The notes beneath the pieces were generated by a model. That model was not told the DNA's origin. It searched no databases and worked only from the letters and a program-made list of their open reading frames with translations. The position numbers and the translations under genes were made by a program. Shown here one piece after another: positions 3,577 to 62,817 of a stretch of DNA of 64,000 nt. The stretch lies in the NCBI GenBank assembly GCA_029168955.1, contig JAPDOI010000956.1:62001-126000 (forward strand), read 5' to 3'. Positions within the stretch are counted from its first letter, which is position 1; every line of letters starts with the position of its first letter. This DNA is from Aplectana chamaeleonis. Taxonomy: Eukaryota; Nematoda; Chromadorea; Rhabditida; Cosmocercidae.

Positions 3577-5085
3577 TTACAAAATTGCAGGACTGACCTC
3601 ACAGCAGAAACATGATGGGGAAATGGATCTGAGGAGGGAGTGGTGGGCAGAGGTAGGGCAGCGAAAGGATATGTTATCTTCGTGATACTCTGCAATTGCA
3701 TTTTTGTACTGAATGGCCGCTATTACACAGTGCTTAACGGGAATGAGTTCCATAGTAGACCTTAGTTCATCTCTGTTGTTTATGGAAGGGTTCAGTCTTC
3801 GGATTTCCAAAGCTTCTTTGATTTTCCTGTCGATGGTATCTGATATATTCTTATGTGGAACATAGACCTTCACCTCTGGAGGGCTTTCCTGTGCATGGTA
3901 CGAGGTGCGATGTCGGGAAAAAGGGTTCTCGGGGTATGAAGGAGGGTTGCGGAGAGTCCTTACGTGCTCGTCTAGTCTCCTGTAAAGTGGTCGTCCACTT
4001 TCTCCTACATAGGACTCTGAGCATGACATACAGACCACTTTGTAAACGGTGTTCTTCAGGAGACAGATCTTTCTCTCCTCATCACAATACAAACAGTTGT
4101 CACGTCCACAGAGGCTTTCGTATAACCGAGACGAAGTGAGAAGGCGTCGCAATGTTACAGGCGGTCGGAGTATCAAACGTATCGGTATTCTTAACCTCTT
4201 CACCAGAAGATTGACGTCTTTCGCAAATGGTTCGGATAGGTAAGGAACGACGAGAGGTTTTCCACCTGGTGTCTGATGAGGATGCCAACATCGGACATCG
4301 CTATTCTCATAACCATTTTCAAGTAATATTTAAGTCACTTTGTCCAACACTTTGGAGACATTTGTCGACGATGTTCTCTGAGCTGTAGTTATGAAGTTTC
4401 GAACGATGTTCCTTTTCATAAAAAGAGGATGCCAGCTTCTCGAATGAACTAAAATGTTCTTTGATGCAGACTTTTTGTACCACATTGAATGTACTTGATT
4501 TTCGAACATTTTCACCTTTGCGTTTAGAAAAGGGAGAAACCCTTCAGAATCAGGATCTTCGGTTGTCAGTGTGATACTTGGGTCTGCTGAACTTAGCATC
4601 AAAAATGTTCGACGAAGTGCTGCTCTTGATCTTCCGACCACAAAGATATCATCTACATAGCGTCCGAAGAACATCATTTCTGAGGATATTGACCGTCGTT
4701 CCAATCGATCCATGAATATTATTGATAGAAGCGGAGCGATACGGCTGCCCATTGCTAGCCCACGTGTTTGCATGTAGATCTGGTTTCGAAAACGAAACAT
4801 GTTGAAGTTAACGACAACTTGCAAAAGATCTTCAATATCTCTTATGGACAGCCCGTAAAGTTGGACATCGTTCTGATATTGACGAAGAAGATTTACACAG
4901 GCTTCTATCGCTGTCCTAGTATCTACATTGGTGTATAGTGCAGACACATTAAAACTTTGATAAGCCATCCTTGGACCGAGTTGGTTGCGTGTTTCTCTTA
5001 GTGTGTTCAAGAAATGTTCCACGTTTTTGAGATGAGATGGTACATTGTCAAGCAGCGGTGAAAGCATGTGCTGAATGTTTTCGAA
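3577..5085 (-). pseudogene. Penelope-like RT and GIY-YIG endonuclease polyprotein, one in-frame stop
   Basis: This would be a fused reverse transcriptase and endonuclease for target-primed integration. The frame enters the RT near 5085, reads SFNVSALYTNVDT (palm motif A region), QTRGLAMGSRIAPLL (motif B) and FGRYVDDIFVV (catalytic motif C). A stop codon at 4330-4332 separates this from the C-terminal part, which stays in the same frame: a cysteine-rich segment (CGRDNCLYC, CMSC) and YVGESGRPLYRRLDEH, the GIY-YIG nuclease core as found in endonuclease-bearing Penelope elements. The frame stops at 3577. The N-terminus is missing, since upstream of 5085 the sequence switches to the inverted copy. 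Apart from the truncation and the single stop, the catalytic motifs look intact, so decay seems fairly recent. Confidence 0.85.
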
Positions 5086-5148
5086 ACCAGATCTACATGC
5101 AAACACGTGGGCTAGCAATGGGCAGCCGTATCGCTCCGCTTCTAGCAG
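5084..5148 (+). repeat. Short Penelope fragment at the inversion junction
   Basis: A 64-base piece of the RT motif B region, plus orientation, is repeated almost identically in the longer plus copy that begins just after it. It sits between the two inverted copies and marks a complex junction, as expected if the reverse transcript switched template during insertion. Confidence 0.6.
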
Positions 5149-6386
5149 TCCTTTGCAAGTTGTCGTTAACTTCAACATGTTTCGTTTTCGAAACAAGATC
5201 TACATGCAAACACGTGGGCTAGCAATGGGCAGCCGTATCGCTCCGCTTCTAGCAATAATATTCATGGAACGACGGTCAATATCCTCAGGAGTGATGTTCT
5301 TCGGACGCTATGTAGATGATATCTTTGTGGTCGGAAGATCAAGAGCAGCACTTCGTCGAACATTTTTGATGCTAAATTCAGCAGACCCGAATATCACACT
5401 GACAACCGAAGATTCTGATTCTGAAGGGTTTCTCCCTTTTCTAAACGCAAAGGTGAAATTGTTCGAAAATCAAGTACATTCAATGTGGTACAAAAAGTCT
5501 GCATCAAAGAACATTTTAGTTTATTCGAGAAGCTGGCATCCTCTTTTTATGAAAAGGAACATCGTTCGAAACTTCATAACTACAGCTCAGAGAACATCGT
5601 CGACAAATGTCTCCAAAGTGTTGGACAAAGTGACACAAATATTACTTGAAAATGGTTATGAGAATAGCGATATCCGATGTTGGCATCCTCATCAGACACC
5701 AGGTGGAACTCCTCTCGTCGTTCCTTACCTATCCGAACCATTTGCGAAAGACGTCAATCTTCTGGTGAAGAGGTTAAGAATACCGATACGTACTCCGACC
5801 GCCTGTAACATTGCGACGCCTTCTCACTTCGTCTCGGTTATACGAAAGCCTCTGTGGACGTGACAACTGTTTGTATTGTGATGAGGAGAGGAAGATCTGT
5901 CTCCTGAAGAACACCGTTTACAAAGTGGTCTGTATGTCATGCTCAGAGTCCTATGTAGGAGAAAGTGGACGATCACTTTACAGGAGACTAGACGAGCACG
6001 TAAGGGCTCTCCGCAACCCTCCTTCATACCCCGAGAACCCTTTTTCCCGACATCGCACCTCGTACCATGCACAGGAAAGCCCTCCAGAGGTGAAGGTCTA
6101 TGTTCCACATAAGAATATATCAGATACCATCGACAGGAAAATCAAAGAAGTTTTGGAAATCCGAAGACTGAACCCTTCCATAAACAACAGAGATGAACTA
6201 AGGTCTACTATGGAACTCATTCCCGTTTAGCATTGTGTAATAGCGGCCATTCAGTACAAAAATGCAATTGCAGAGTATCACGAAGATAACATATCCTTTC
6301 GCTACCCTACCTCTGCCCACCACTCCCTCCTCAGATCCATTTCCCCATCATGTTTCTGCTGTGAGGTCAGTCCTGCAATTTTGGAA
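5149..6386 (+). pseudogene. Penelope-like RT and GIY-YIG polyprotein, frameshifted
   Basis: Reads motif B (GLAMGSRIAPLL) and FGRYVDDIFVV, then the cysteine-rich segment and YVGESGRSLYRRLDEH of the GIY-YIG domain. Compared with the minus copy it has a 9-base deletion after IIFM (residues DRL missing), a 5-base deletion near 5790 that throws the nuclease out of the RT frame, a Lys-to-stop change at about 6228 (GTTTAGC for GTTAAGC) and loss of the original stop near 6384. It retains Gln where the minus copy has its stop at 4330. The two copies therefore decayed independently after insertion. Confidence 0.85.
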
Positions 6387-11721: not shown

Positions 11722-12965
11722 GTGATTTAGCTTCCTGGTAAAAGCAACGATTTGGTATTGATAAAAAAAGTTTCAAAAATGTCTTGAAATATCTCTGAAA
11801 AAATGATCTGGCGTAAAATAGCCTGGAAAAATAAAAAAGTTAGGAAATGAAAAATGCGTTTTGGTGGTCGACCACTTCACAAGCTTCTCCGTTAAACCTA
11901 ATAAAACGAAATCAAGTACGATACAGATTTGGAGCTTTGCGTTCACCTAGCTTGACCTATGCTAATTCCCCTATTACAGCTTTCAAAAACGGCTTAATGT
12001 TTCCGTTTCGCGCTTGATTTCGTTTTGGTAAGTTCAACGGAGAAGCTAGTGAAATGATCGATCACCAAATCGAATTTTCGTTTATTTCACTTCATTTCCT
12101 AACTTTTTTATTTTTCCAGGCTATTTTACGTTAAATCATTTTTTGAAGATATTTCAAGACATTTTTGAAACTTTTTTTATCATTACCAAATCGTTATTTT
12201 TGCCAGGAAGCTAAACTTTCAGAAATTTCACATATTTTTCCCGGAGGTTCCCTTTCTGACTTCAATTTTGCTCAACGATTTCCATTTCGGAATCATGAAA
12301 CATCTAACAACGAGATTGTCGAATGAGTACAATTTTTGAAACTTATTACCCAAAACCATAAACATACCACTCATTGCCGCATTTTGTGCATCATGTGAGA
12401 ACTCGATATTATTGATCATTAATATTTGATCTTGCATGATGAGAAGAATTTCCCAAACAAGTGACTTAAAGCCATCAACAATCGAAAATCATTGCGGCAT
12501 TTTATGCAACAGTCGAAAAAATCAATATTATTGATCGGTATTTATCGATAATGACTGATGAGCGAAATTCTAAAACAAAGAAAACCAATCCCATCAGCAA
12601 TCCCCACTCCAAGCCGCATTTGGTGCAAAAAGCGCGAAAATCGATAATATTGATTATCGATCGATGACGACATTTCCAGCCTCCTGTCCAAAAATGAGCT
12701 CCCTAGCTCAATTTTAAGTGTGCCAACAAGATCGTGTACGCCGCCTGAAAAAAAGTAGATTAACAACAAAAACGCGCGGTCTTTCATTTTTTACTCAAAA
12801 ACCAGTGAACCGTTCTAAGCCATTTTTGGGTACATATTCCAACTTTTTGCGCTCTTTTAAATGCAATTTAGCTCTAATTTCTACGTTCACTCTCAACTGA
12901 GATTTCGAAAAAGGGGTTGCGCGCGGGGCCGATTCAGAACCAAATCTGGTGCGCGCTTCGCGCGC
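11722..12965. repeat. Repeat family copy 1: 490-bp foldback plus 750-bp tail
   Basis: 11722-12215 is an extended palindrome: the left arm from TTTAGCTTCCTGGTAAAAGC pairs with the right arm ending at GCCAGGAAGCTAAA, and CACAAGCTTCTCCGTTAA pairs with its complement near 12030. Downstream sequence to 12965 runs parallel to 29226-30070 in the second copy (for example TTTTGCTCAACGATTTCCAT). The copy ends with the hairpin GGTGCGCGCTTCGCGCGCAC. No coding frame is recognised. Confidence 0.8.
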
Positions 12966-28189: not shown

Positions 28190-28498
28190 AAGAGATATTT
28201 GGTGGTCGATCATTTCACAAGCTTCTCCGTTAAACTTGTCAAAGCGAAATCAAGCAAGATACGGAATGGAGCATCGTGTTCAGCTAGCTTAACCTGTACT
28301 GATTCCCTTATAACAGCTTTCAAAAATGGCTTAATGTTTCCGTTGCGCGCTTGATTTTGTTTTGATAATTTTAACGGAGAAGCTTGTGAAATCATCGACC
28401 TGCCGCTAAGCGACTAGTGATCTCTCAATATTATCCTTATCCGTCTTATTGTTTGAATAATGTTTCTGTTTCGAATAAGAGGTTTCTCATATGACTAA

Positions 28499-28735
28499 TG
28501 GAATGGCACTTTTGCCGCGGCTTTCTCCTCGAAACTTTTCTCGCCTCCTATCAGCGTGGTCAATCGTTTATCGGAGAAAAACAAAGAGGCCAAGAATGCA
28601 CTTATCGCTGAGAACGGAGGCTTCTGGTATAAGAAGCGCGCGGTGGAGGCAAAAGTGCTGTTTCATCGTCTCCGAGCAGCGGACGAGAAATTCGAAAGAA
28701 TTTCGAATCCGCTGCTCCATTCTCCCTTTCTGTAG
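28499..28735 (+). other. Coding-like open frame of 78 codons without Met start
   Basis: Between TAA (28496) and TAG (28733) this frame encodes a basic, helix-prone peptide with SEKNKEAKNALIAENGGFWY and KVLFHRLRAADEKFERIS. It has a more protein-like composition than neighbouring frames. It could be the tail of a retroelement protein overlapping the LTR, or chance. Hairpin 1 overlaps its end. Family unknown. Confidence 0.35.
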
Positions 28736-28860
28736 AAGAAACTCGCAAGAGTTTCTGTTTTTTTTTTCTTCATGAAGAAACTCGAAAGAGTTTCTGTTTA
28801 CTAGAAGGAACTCGAAAGAGTTCCTGAATTCACTTTGGCAGGATGAATTCGCAAGAATTC
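28674..28860 (+). ncRNA. Row of five hairpins with C-GNRA-G loops
   Basis: Hairpins: 28687-28704 (GAAATTC, GAAA, GAATTTC) inside a further 10-bp stem 28674-28717; 28738-28755 (GAAACTC, GCAA, GAGTTTC); 28777-28794 (GAAACTC, GAAA, GAGTTTC); 28807-28824 (GGAACTC, GAAA, GAGTTCC); 28845-28860 (GAATTC, GCAA, GAATTC). Stem bases change in matched pairs between hairpins, while the C-GNRA-G cap stays fixed. This suggests RNA structure rather than simple repetition. As DNA the words also loosely resemble heat-shock elements, but the GAA-TTC spacing is not canonical. Confidence 0.6.
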
Positions 28861-28914
28861 TGAATGCATATCTCTATATGTATAATTTTTGTTGTTGTAT
28901 TATTTGTTGTTGAA

Positions 28915-28922
28915 TATATAAA
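28915..28922 (+). promoter_or_regulatory. TATA-like box next to SL1 sequence
   Basis: TATATAAA directly upstream of the SL1 match, after an AT-rich run. If used as a TATA box, a start 25-30 bases downstream would fall just past the SL1 segment. Confidence 0.4.
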
Positions 28923-28944
28923 AGTTTAATTACCCAAGTTTGAG
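28923..28944 (+). other. SL1 spliced-leader sequence, 21 of 22 bases
   Basis: From the second base onward this equals the conserved nematode SL1 leader, including TTTAATTACCCAAGTTTGAG; only the first base differs (A for G). After GAG comes GCTATT, not the GT splice donor of an SL RNA gene, so this is a leader joined to other sequence. That fits either a retrocopied trans-spliced transcript or an element that has adopted SL1 as part of its own 5' region. Confidence 0.85.
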
Positions 28945-30075
28945 GCTATTCGAGAAGTCGTCCATCGTTGCGAGAAGAGCCTGTCGAGACAAGAAGTCCC
29001 GCGTGGGGAATTGGCGAGTACACTCACAATCAAGAGAACAGGCCTTTTCTATGCGACCACCAAATCGCATTTTAGGTTATTTCGCTTCTTTTCCTAGTTT
29101 TTTCATTACTCCAGACTATTTTACGCCAAATCATGTTTTAAAGGTATTTCAGGACATTTTTGAAACTTTTTTGACCACTACCAAATCTTTGCTTTCGCCA
29201 GGAAGCTAAATTTTCAGAATTTCCACATGTTTTTCCAAGAGGTTCCCTTTATGACTTCAATTTTGCTCAACGATTTCCATTTCGGAATGATGAAACATCT
29301 AACAGACCATATTGTCGTATGAGTACAATTTTTAAAACTTATAACCCAAAACCACAAAAATTAGCACTCATCGCCGCATTTTGTTCAACATGTGAGAACT
29401 CGATATTATTGATCACTAATATTTGATCTTGGTATTTGGTATTTATCGACATTGACTGATGAGCAAATTTCCTCAACCAAGAACCAATCCCACCAGCAAT
29501 CACCACTCCTTGCCGCATTTTGCGCAAAAAGCGCGAAAATCGAGAATATTGATTATCGATCGATGACGTGTCATGAGTACGAATTCTGAAAAGTTCAGTA
29601 CTTACCTACGACGACCTGTGTTGATTAGATGCAGATTCACCTACACACTCAGGTCTCCACAGCCGTAGCAGGAAAAAGTAGTTTTCGTGCTCCATGGCTC
29701 ATTCAGTATGTAAACCCACGATTTTGAGGTACCCTTCAAAGTTAAGGTATCAGGCTCAAATTGGAATAGGAGCGACCTGCATCCATTTCCGACCTCCTGT
29801 CCAAAAATGAGCTCCCTAGCTCAATTTTAAGTGTACCAACAAGATCGTGTACGCCGTCTGAAAAAAAGGAGATTAACAACAAAAACGCGCGGTCTTTCAC
29901 TTTTTACTCGAAAACCAGTGAACCATTCCAAACCATTTTTGGGTGGTTTACCAAACTTTTTGCGCTCTTTTCAATGCAATTTAGCTCTTATTTCTACGTT
30001 CACTCTGAACTGAGATTTCGAAAAAGGGGTTGCGCGCGGGGCCGATTCAAAACCAAATCTGGTGCGCGCCTCGCG

Positions 30076-61558: not shown

Positions 61559-62817
61559 CCAGGCCGTCCAATAATTCCTGTCCGAAAATCTTCAAAATTC
61601 TATAGTTTCCCTTAGAAGTGTTATAATATCAGGCAAGTGTAAGAACCTTTTAGAAGGTCCTCCAAAGTTCTACGCTAGGGGTAAATAAGGCGCAGTCGCC
61701 GCGTCTAGCTACCAGTACAAGCTAAAATGGACCAAGGTCGAATTCGTACGTTCGTGTACTACGAGTGGCTGCTGGGCAACGACACGGGCACCGCGGTCGC
61801 CAACATCTGCAGAGCGTGCATGGAGGATGCAGTGTCCCAACGCACAGTCAGCCGCTGTTTCAATCGTTTCGAGAGCGGCGACACGAGCCTCGAGGACAGG
61901 CAGCACAGCGGGAGGCCTTCTACGGTGGATGATGACGAAGTCCGTCACTGTATCAAGGAGAAGCCGGAAGCCACCACCCGTGAACTGGCGACGACGCTCG
62001 GCTGCAGCAAGTCCACCATCCACAATCGACTCAACTTACTCGGCTACCACAAAGTTCTGGCCCGTTGAATCCCCCACCGTCTGCCGGACGCCACCAAGCA
62101 GAGCCGCGTGGCCGTCTGCCAGTCCCTCCTCCTTCGTCCGCATCGCAAGGAGTTTCTCGAGGACCTGGTCACTGGGGATAAGAGCTGGGTCCTCTACGAC
62201 AACGTCGCCCGCCGTGCCGTCTGGATCCCGCGCGGAGAAGAGCCGCCGACGACGCCGAAAGCCGACCTGCACCCGCTGAAGATCATGCTCTGCTGCTGGT
62301 GGGACACCAAGGGCATGCTGTACTTCGAGCTGCTCCCGCAAGGCAGGACGGTCACCGATTCCATCTACACCGATCAGCTCGAGAAAAAAGCCGCCGGCAT
62401 CCGAGAAAAGCGTCCCCGATGGGCCTCGGTCCACCTGCTGCACGACAACGCGCGCCCCCACGTGGCGAAGAAGACCCAGCAGAAGTTGGCGACGCTCGGC
62501 TGGGAGACGGTTGCCCATCCGCCGTATTCCCCGGACCTCGCCCCCTCCGACTACCACTTGTTCCGCCCGCTGAAGCACCATTTGGCCGGAAGAAAATTCA
62601 CCAACTACGACAACCTAGAATCCGACATCGCGGACTTCTTCGAGTCGCAGCCCCCGGGGTTCTGCGCGAAGGGCATCGGCGACCTGCCCAATCGATGGAC
62701 CACTGTTGTGGATAACTGTGGTGATTATATTGTTGATTAGACTTGTTTTTCAATAGAGTTGAAAAAAATTAAAAATGGTGAAATTTTTAGACAAGAAAGA
62801 ATTATTGGACAGCCTGG
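61559..62817 (+). mobile_element. mariner transposon, complete, TA-flanked
   Basis: Terminal repeats CCAGGCCGTCCAATAATTCC and, reverse-complemented, CCAGGCTGTCCAATAATTCT; TA on both sides (61557-61558 and 62818-62819). 1259 bp, the usual mariner size. Its coding part is GC-rich (about 60 percent or more by eye) in an AT-rich setting. Confidence 0.95.
61727..62740 (+). pseudogene. mariner transposase with a single in-frame TGA
   Basis: A DDD transposase that would cut at the TIRs and insert at TA. The frame is continuous over 337 codons except a TGA at codon 114 (62066-62068), where the context is LAR-stop-IPHRLPD and Trp is conserved in relatives. The N-terminal half has two helix-turn-helix regions (SQRTVSRCFNRFESGDTSLE; TTRELATTLGCSKSTIHNRL). 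The catalytic triad is intact: D151 (VTGDKSW), D240 (LLHDNARPH) and D275 (YSPDLAPSDYHLF), the last pair 34 residues apart as in mariner. The WVPH-type linker lies at the stop. The start at 61727 gives the normal MDQ-type N-terminus. A hookworm mariner (bandit) is known, and this may be kin; I could not compare them. Confidence 0.9.

What the first reader, a model, noticed from the sequence alone, without database searches (positions are those of the whole stretch)
28923..28944. SL1 spliced leader embedded in an LTR-like insertion
Seen: a 21-base exact match to nematode SL1 (22 nt) with only the first base different, followed by non-donor sequence, 1-9 bases after TATATAAA, inside a precise 653-bp insertion. 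Known: SL1 is added to mRNAs by trans-splicing, and in Ascaris the SL sequence itself is a promoter element of SL RNA genes. Inference: the element either captured a leader from its own trans-spliced RNA during reverse transcription, or uses SL1 as a built-in promoter or 5' tag so its RNA mimics a trans-spliced mRNA.
Basis: partly seen in the sequence, partly recalled or inferred. Interest (0 to 1): 0.88.

Follow-up and report, generated by a model that had tools for sequence, protein, structure and literature searches.

The report
Host spliced leader inside retrovirus-like repeats
In a roundworm genome, many families of retrovirus-like jumping genes carry the worm's own messenger-RNA leader (SL1) at one fixed spot in their end repeats, probably because the worm puts SL1 on the front of their RNA and the element needs the same letters at the back to copy itself.

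Summary
In detail: 28923-28944 matches SL1 in 21 of 22 bases, inside a solo LTR (28401-29053) flanked by a 5-bp duplication, CGACC. It is not a one-off. The genome has 40 other matches to this LTR; the 20 fetched all carry SL1 at the same place, and three of seven LTR pairs compared are identical over 645 bp. The 21-mer occurs 1,215 times. Of the first 100 sites I class 38 as LTRs of multi-copy families and 6 more as LTR-like. SL1 LTRs fall into 26 sequence groups (16 at a looser threshold). The elements read are BEL/Pao-like, primed by tRNA-Gly. In a sample chosen by primer site, 21 of 47 carry SL1. SL1 lies at the U3/U5 boundary. Where a TATA box is found it is mostly 60-120 bp upstream, and poly(A)-like hexamers touch SL1 in 13 of 32. 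Two copies switch away from their own U3 at SL1's first bases. Best model: SL1 is the R region, supplied to the RNA 5' end by trans-splicing and encoded near the 3' end so first-strand transfer still works. No RNA data were available.

The parts
28396..28400 (.). left target-site duplication CGACC
   Evidence: empty paralogous site at 11860-12155
28401..28922 (+). U3 of a solo LTR (5' end TGCCGC; 18 of 20 relatives TGTCGC)
   Evidence: relatives with matching ends, pairs mostly 9.6-11.7 kb apart
28917..28922 (+). TATAAA, poly(A)-signal-like hexamer abutting SL1
   Evidence: hexamer within 1 mismatch of AATAAA ending 0-6 nt before SL1 in 13 of 32 representatives, control bins mean 0.9, max 4
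28923..28944 (+). SL1 (21 of 22 bases), proposed R region and trans-splice acceptor end (GAG|G)
28945..29053 (+). U5 (most relatives end CTACA; those with an interior after the LTR are followed by tggtgcatcg)
28999..29006 (+). CCGCGTGG, complement of the tRNA-Gly anticodon arm, recurrent in U5
   Evidence: within 2 mismatches of CCGCGTGGCA in 23 of 32 representatives, shuffled 5%
29054..29058 (.). right target-site duplication CGACC

Best explanation
The insert is a solo LTR of a recently active, BEL/Pao-type retroelement family. In this family and many others of the same genome, SL1 stands in the place of the element's own R region. Pol II starts upstream (at a TATA box where one is present), so the primary transcript begins with an AU-rich outron. 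SL1 is trans-spliced to the AG|G(T) at the end of the encoded SL1, so the mature genomic RNA begins SL1-U5-primer site. At the 3' end the RNA runs through U3 and a poly(A) signal and is cut in or just after the encoded SL1, so it ends ...U3-SL1. SL1 is then the terminal repeat through which the tRNA-Gly-primed strong-stop DNA moves to the 3' end. Shown: position, recurrence, LTR anatomy, recent movement, junctions at SL1's start. Inferred: trans-splicing of the element RNA, cleavage at SL1, the strand-transfer role, and BEL/Pao membership of the window's own family.
For: SL1 in both LTRs at one place; three of seven window-family pairs identical over 645 bp. In 40 primer-site elements fetched without reference to SL1, 14 carry it: 12 with 0-2 mismatches, 1 with 4, 1 with an indel; the other 26 are at background (8-12; reversed control 8-11). 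SL1 LTRs form 26 groups by U3/U5 similarity at E 1e-6. TATAAAA-to-SL1 gaps: 16-45 bp 1, 60-90 bp 8, 91-120 bp 26, 151-180 bp 2. U3 just upstream is T-rich and C-poor; the base after SL1 is G in 30 of 32, then T in 25 of 32. L162 is a mosaic: U3 of one family (74% over 104 nt) switches to SL1-U5 of another (100% over 69 nt) at TTTAATT, the start of SL1. L102 has SL1-U5-PBS without its family's U3 before it.
Against: No RNA was examined. A search for SL1 followed by a run of 12 A within 28 bases found 0, so no genomic fossil of a poly(A) end at SL1 was seen. A poly(A)-like hexamer touches SL1 in only 13 of 32. Only 7 of 35 representatives have TATAAA at -140..-60, and the gap counts come from about ten families with many copies each. 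TTTGAG is a weak acceptor against the UUUUCAG consensus (recalled). SL1 is well but not uniquely conserved in the window family (0.976 against LTR mean 0.89; rank 32 of 633 windows). C. elegans Cer1 full-length RNA is reported not to be SL1 trans-spliced at its site (PMC3315495, passages). 26 of the 47 primer-site elements have no SL1. The interior of the window's own family was not read.
Confidence: 0.6

Rival explanations
1. SL1 is a core promoter/initiator: Pol II starts at its first base, as in Ascaris SL RNA genes, so the element makes an RNA that already begins with SL1 and needs no trans-splicing.
For: L102 and L162 suggest RNA or cDNA ends at SL1 but do not say how the end was made. 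SL RNA promoters of Ascaris use the SL sequence (recalled). Most families show no clear TATA box elsewhere.
Against: No TATAWA at -36..-22 in 32 of 32; where TATAAAA is found it is mostly 60-120 bp upstream. No LTR site clustered with the dispersed SL1 repeats that are mostly followed by GTA.
Confidence: 0.15
2. SL1 was captured once by an ancestor through trans-spliced RNA and is now inherited passively, with no role in the life cycle.
For: The SL1 families tested share the tRNA-Gly primer site (six of seven pairs in full, L035 in part), and nine match a BEL/Pao RT-A17 query in fetched pieces or supplied it. Capture of SL1 by reverse transcription does seem to happen: 14 of 100 sites are repeats that begin at or just after SL1.
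Against: Passive sequence should have decayed as U3 and U5 did; SL1 matches are near-perfect or absent in nearly all of the primer-site sample. SL1 and non-SL1 elements are interleaved on an RT tree of 10 tips.
Confidence: 0.12
3. SL1 followed by GT is a cis 5' splice site: the encoded SL1 exon is spliced to an env acceptor, giving env messages a normal-looking leader.
For: T is the second base after SL1 in 25 of 32 representatives and G the first in 30; two families have Phlebovirus_G2 env.
Against: Donor positions +3 to +6 are not conserved; the window family has GC after SL1.
Confidence: 0.08

Closest known systems
BEL/Pao LTR retroelements (Belpaoviridae): Tas of Ascaris, Cer7 of C. elegans, Atlas virus of the hookworm Ancylostoma ceylanicum
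   Same: DUF1759 gag, RT, Peptidase_A17, integrase and Phlebovirus_G2 env domains in pieces of SL1 elements; identical LTRs in young copies, as reported for Atlas (PMC9094657, passages)
   Different: SL1 inside the LTR. 'Spliced leader' does not occur in the held main texts of the Atlas paper or of the BEL/Pao survey PMC3118150. The original Tas and Cer papers were not seen; what I say of them is recalled
Cer1 (Ty3/gypsy) of C. elegans
   Same: LTR element whose spliced 2.4-kb mRNA is found with and without SL1 (PMC3315495, passages)
   Different: The 8-kb RNA was reported not trans-spliced at that site; SL1 is not described as part of the LTR in the passages seen
Retrocopies with relict spliced leaders (Schistosoma elements; dinoflagellate retrogenes, the latter recalled)
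   Same: Genome-encoded SL in six Schistosoma transposable elements, which the authors suggest may be trans-spliced retro-transcribed elements or assembly chimeras (PMC5832876, passages)
   Different: Those are described as SL inside gene bodies; here SL1 is at one place in both LTRs, in many copies and families
Canonical U3-R-U5 LTR
   Same: One non-SL1 family of the primer-site sample (L147, L150, L154, L157, L170, L171) has TATAAAAG about 95 bp before the primer site, with AATAAA between in the two printed
   Different: In SL1 elements SL1 occupies the R position and TATA, where found, is farther upstream

Membership tests
LTR retrotransposon (solo LTR) | target-site duplication flanking the insert | tested here: met
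   CGACC both sides, empty paralogue. Relatives: TACCT, TGATT, TTGTT in three pairs and TCTAC in a solo copy; none seen for the C17, C1495 and C85 pairs; C498 not assessable
LTR retrotransposon (solo LTR) | full elements with the same LTR at both ends, PBS and PPT | tested here: met
   pairs, tggtgcatcg after 5' LTRs, purine-rich gcggaggcggag before 3' LTRs
BEL/Pao | gag-pol domain set with Peptidase_A17 | tested here: met
   For other SL1 families: Pfam A17 and RT in L023/L024, gag and integrase domains in L021/L022, integrase in L035/L036; tblastn with L070 matches pieces of eight further SL1 families. One L053/L054 ORF had no Pfam match
BEL/Pao | pol of the window's own family | not tested
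   interior of the window family was not fetched; membership rests on shared primer site, LTR ends and U5 motif
SL1 RNA gene | GT donor directly after SL1 | tested here: not met
   window has GC after SL1
SL1 RNA gene | Rfam match to an SL RNA family | tested here: not met
   only weak bacterial or snoRNA families far below cut-off in 28301-29200
SL1 as R region | SL1 between U3 and U5 in both LTRs | tested here: met
SL1 as R region | RNA 5' end at SL1 by trans-splicing | not testable with these tools
   only genomic junctions L102, L162
SL1 as R region | RNA 3' end in or just after SL1 | tested here: inconclusive
   hexamer in 13 of 32; no SL1-A12 fossils

The most novel reading that the evidence does not exclude
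A whole radiation of nematode retrovirus-like elements has outsourced its R region to the host: the 5' terminal repeat of the genomic RNA is added in trans by the spliced-leader machinery and the 3' one is an encoded copy of SL1. Because every SL1 element then has the same R, strong-stop DNA of one family can jump to RNA of another at SL1, which would let U3 and U5 reassort freely (L162 would be one such jump).
Probability: 0.5. Interest if true: 0.9.

Novelty: new variant of a known kind. Interest (0 to 1): 0.8.

Why it matters
Trans-splicing removes the 5' end of a transcript, which should break the terminal redundancy that LTR elements need. Encoding SL1 in the LTR would solve that problem and explain how retroelements survive in hosts that trans-splice many messages. 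It also gives a testable route for mixing of LTR halves between families, and predicts that host SL1 and LTR SL1 evolve together in each nematode.

Tried and rejected
One-off capture: rejected, all 20 fetched relatives carry SL1 (40 other matches exist, 26 of them covering 500 or more of the 653 positions). SL RNA gene fragment: rejected for the window (GC after SL1; no plausible Rfam match). SL1 as initiator: disfavoured by TATA spacing. The 15-bp duplication inside SL1 in L137 first looked like a strand-transfer scar, but its partner LTR L138 lacks it, so it probably arose after insertion.

Led nowhere: SL1 in viral contigs and genome contigs, 0 hits each, so no other species could be compared; plasmids, no match; poly(A) fossil search, 0 hits. 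SL2 occurs 53 times against 1,215 for SL1, but the SL2 sites were not read. 25 sites that I first took for SL RNA genes: 0 Rfam matches in the 7 tested; the strict Sm motif is in 0 of 25, a looser A-T-run-G motif in 7 of 25. I do not call them SL RNA genes.

Weak points: the 100 SL1 sites and 47 primer sites are the first listed, from the first contigs, not random. The 14-mer also asks for an LTR ending in TA, so it misses, for one, the window family. The classes of the 100 sites are my own sorting. The 32 representatives were picked by me: 23 chosen by SL1, 9 from the primer-site sample; at E 1e-6 some are related (L013/L048, L112/L164/L179, L067/L161, L148/L178). The RT tree has 10 tips, several partial; of 20 pieces fetched for it, 10 non-SL1 pieces gave 3 tips and 10 SL1 pieces gave 4, three more SL1 tips came from earlier loci, and support at other nodes is 39-73 save one of 100. 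TATA gaps 46-59 and 121-150 were not searched, and the gap pattern asks for G after SL1.

Print check: among the listed titles and abstract starts of library searches (open-licence PMC only, 4-20 rows listed each) I saw no paper on SL1 inside LTRs. Passages were seen in PMC3315495, PMC4558846, PMC7652881, PMC5832876, PMC7986045, PMC9071541, PMC9094657 and PMC3118150; a term search of PMC10309623 found nothing. Older Tas and Cer papers were not seen, so prior description cannot be excluded.

Full report
What was checked. The window has one SL1 match, 28923-28944 on the + strand, 21 of 22 bases, none in 100 shuffles. It lies in a 653-bp insert, 28401-29053, with CGACC on both sides, in the right arm of a host inverted repeat. 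A second copy of that host repeat at 11860-12155 runs through the site without the insert. So the observation and the insertion boundaries are right.

The family. The own genome (1.04 Gb, 2,087 contigs) holds 41 matches to the insert, the window's own included; 26 of the 40 others cover 500 or more of its 653 positions. I fetched 20 of the 40. All 20 have SL1 at the same place: 13 exact over 22 bases (one of these, L137, with a 15-bp duplication behind), 4 with one mismatch, 2 with two, 1 with three; 19 start GG, so the A in the window is private. Seven pairs were compared: three are identical over 645 bp, the others 96.7-99.7%, so the family moved very recently. Six pairs lie 9.6-11.7 kb apart and one 19 kb; one of them (C498) is not a simple pair, since both LTRs are followed by a primer site. 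Most LTRs run TGTCGC...CTACA; 5' LTRs are followed by tggtgcatcg, 3' LTRs preceded by a purine-rich tract. 5-bp duplications are seen in three pairs (TACCT, TGATT, TTGTT) and a solo copy (TCTAC), not in the C17, C1495 and C85 pairs. The window copy is a slightly decayed solo LTR.

Other families. The SL1 21-mer occurs 1,215 times, read backwards 0 times. The first 100 listed sites were fetched and sorted by me: 38 as LTRs with relatives beyond SL1, among them 12 same-strand pairs 1.4-16 kb apart; 6 single sites with LTR-like flanks; 23 in two dispersed repeat classes, SL1 followed by GTA in 18; 14 repeats that begin at or just after SL1; 19 others. With the 14 SL1 elements of the primer-site sample and the window, these LTRs form 26 groups by U3 or U5 similarity at E 1e-6 and 16 at E 1e-3. 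Seven LTR pairs were compared end to end: four show 5-bp duplications (ATCTG, CTACC, TATAC, GCAAC), and six have TGGTGCATCGGC directly after the 5' LTR, L035 a shorter TGCATCGGC. This is the complement of the 3' end of tRNA-Gly(GCC); that identity rests on recalled nematode tRNA-Gly and on the extended matches of L048, L101 and L134, while the window's own tRNA-Gly copy is imperfect. Ten ORFs from interior pieces were sent to Pfam: DUF1759, RT, Peptidase_A17 and integrase domains and, in two families, Phlebovirus_G2; two ORFs had no match. A tblastn with L070 matched pieces of eight further SL1 families and 3 of 10 non-SL1 elements; 6 of 10 SL1 pieces fetched for it had no match. So the elements read are BEL/Pao elements of the Tas/Cer7/Atlas sort (names recalled, Atlas). 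A search for Peptidase_A17 scored 150 matches of 1,073 candidates.

An SL1-blind sample. The primer-site 14-mer TATGGTGCATCGGC has 134 hits, reversed control 1. Of the first 47 listed, 7 were SL1 LTRs already read and 40 were fetched. 14 of the 40 carry SL1 (0 mismatches 5, 1 mismatch 3, 2 mismatches 4, 4 mismatches 1, one with an indel); the other 26 have best scores of 8-12 mismatches, like the reversed control (8-11). So 21 of 47 carry SL1 and 26 do not. One non-SL1 family (six of the 26) has TATAAAAG about 95 bp before the primer site, with AATAAA between the two in the copies printed, the usual R arrangement.

Where SL1 sits. In 32 representatives none has TATAWA at -36 to -22. Genome-wide, TATAAAA-to-SL1 gaps are 1 at 16-45 bp, 8 at 60-90, 26 at 91-120 and 2 at 151-180; the 34 at 60-120 come from about ten families by their first bases. 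In 35 printed representatives only 7 have TATAAA at -140 to -60, so most families have no clear TATA box. U3 just before SL1 is T-rich and C-poor. A hexamer within one mismatch of AATAAA ends 0-6 nt before SL1 in 13 of 32 (control bins mean 0.9, max 4). After SL1 comes G in 30 of 32 and then T in 25 of 32. AG|GU is the preferred site of U2AF35 and outrons are AU-rich (both recalled), which fits a 3' splice site at SL1's end; a 5' splice site is a rival reading.

Junctions at SL1. L162 has U3 that matches the L002 family (74% over 104 nt) up to TTTAATT, then SL1 from its third base and the U5 of the L037 family at 100% over 69 nt. This is what a strong-stop DNA ending in SL1 would leave after landing on the wrong RNA; recombination of DNA at the 7-nt identity is not excluded. 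L102 has SL1-U5-primer site identical over 80 nt to L101 but not its U3.

Evolution. An RT tree of 10 partial sequences (7 SL1, 3 without) mixes the two states; nodes with support 87 and 76 hold both. The tree is small and unrooted, and other nodes have support of 39-73 save one of 100.

Model. Trans-splicing cuts away the start of a transcript and would destroy terminal redundancy. With SL1 encoded at the U3/U5 boundary, the RNA has SL1 at its 5' end (from the host) and SL1 near its 3' end (encoded), and first-strand transfer works. Position, recurrence, recent movement and junctions are shown; trans-splicing, the poly(A) site and the strand-transfer role are inferred. Against it: no RNA data, the poly(A)-fossil search was empty, SL1 in the window family is well but not uniquely conserved (rank 32 of 633 windows), and Cer1 8-kb RNA in C. 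elegans is reported not to be trans-spliced at the tested site (PMC3315495, passages).

Known work. PMC9094657 (Atlas virus), PMC3118150 (BEL/Pao survey) and PMC10309623 (Cer1 CERV) contain no 'spliced leader' in the held main text. PMC5832876 suggests that six Schistosoma SL-bearing elements may be trans-spliced retrocopies, or assembly chimeras (passages). Most SL2-like hits of this genome read GGTTTTAACCCAGTATCTCAAG, the SL2 given for Haemonchus contortus in PMC7652881 (passages), so the host is probably a strongylid; that is inference.

Counts of relatives (40 others, not 41), TATA coverage, duplications missing in three pairs, Sm motif counts and the number of families were mended (one search was run for the last).

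Noticed in passing
L030, L046, L051, L061, L097; L019, L041, L059, L089; L029, L098, L107; L047, L117 (sites at +0): 14 of 100 SL1 sites are repeats, most shared over 700 bp or more, that begin at or just after SL1 with unrelated DNA upstream, LINE-like copies of trans-spliced RNA; L046, L098 and L107 joined SL1 at a different upstream point.
   Followed up: partly
L001, L004, L012 and 15 others; L005, L006, L055, L060, L093: Two dispersed repeat classes with SL1 mostly followed by GTA; no Rfam match in those tested, strict Sm motif in none, a looser one in the smaller class and L065. Their nature is open.
   Followed up: partly
U5 of many SL1 LTRs; window 28999-29006: CCGCGTGGCA, complement of the tRNA-Gly anticodon arm, suggests a second contact between primer tRNA and template.
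   Followed up: partly
L048, L101, L130, L134 after the 5' LTR: Primer site extended far beyond 18 nt into the tRNA-Gly complement, as if reverse transcriptase had copied deep into the tRNA.
   Followed up: no
L137, 3' LTR of a window-family element: 15-bp tandem duplication inside SL1, absent from the partner LTR L138.
   Followed up: yes
window 11860-12155 and 28198-28400 with 29054-29150: Two copies of an inverted-repeat element; one is the empty site of the LTR insertion.
   Followed up: partly
window 3577-6230 and 62069-62740: ORFs that look like Penelope-like (GIY-YIG-like motif) and mariner-like elements, by eye from the translation; not searched.
   Followed up: no
elements of L021/L022 and L023/L024 (pieces L077, L072): Phlebovirus_G2 envelope domain in BEL/Pao elements, similar to the reported hookworm Atlas virus.
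   Followed up: no
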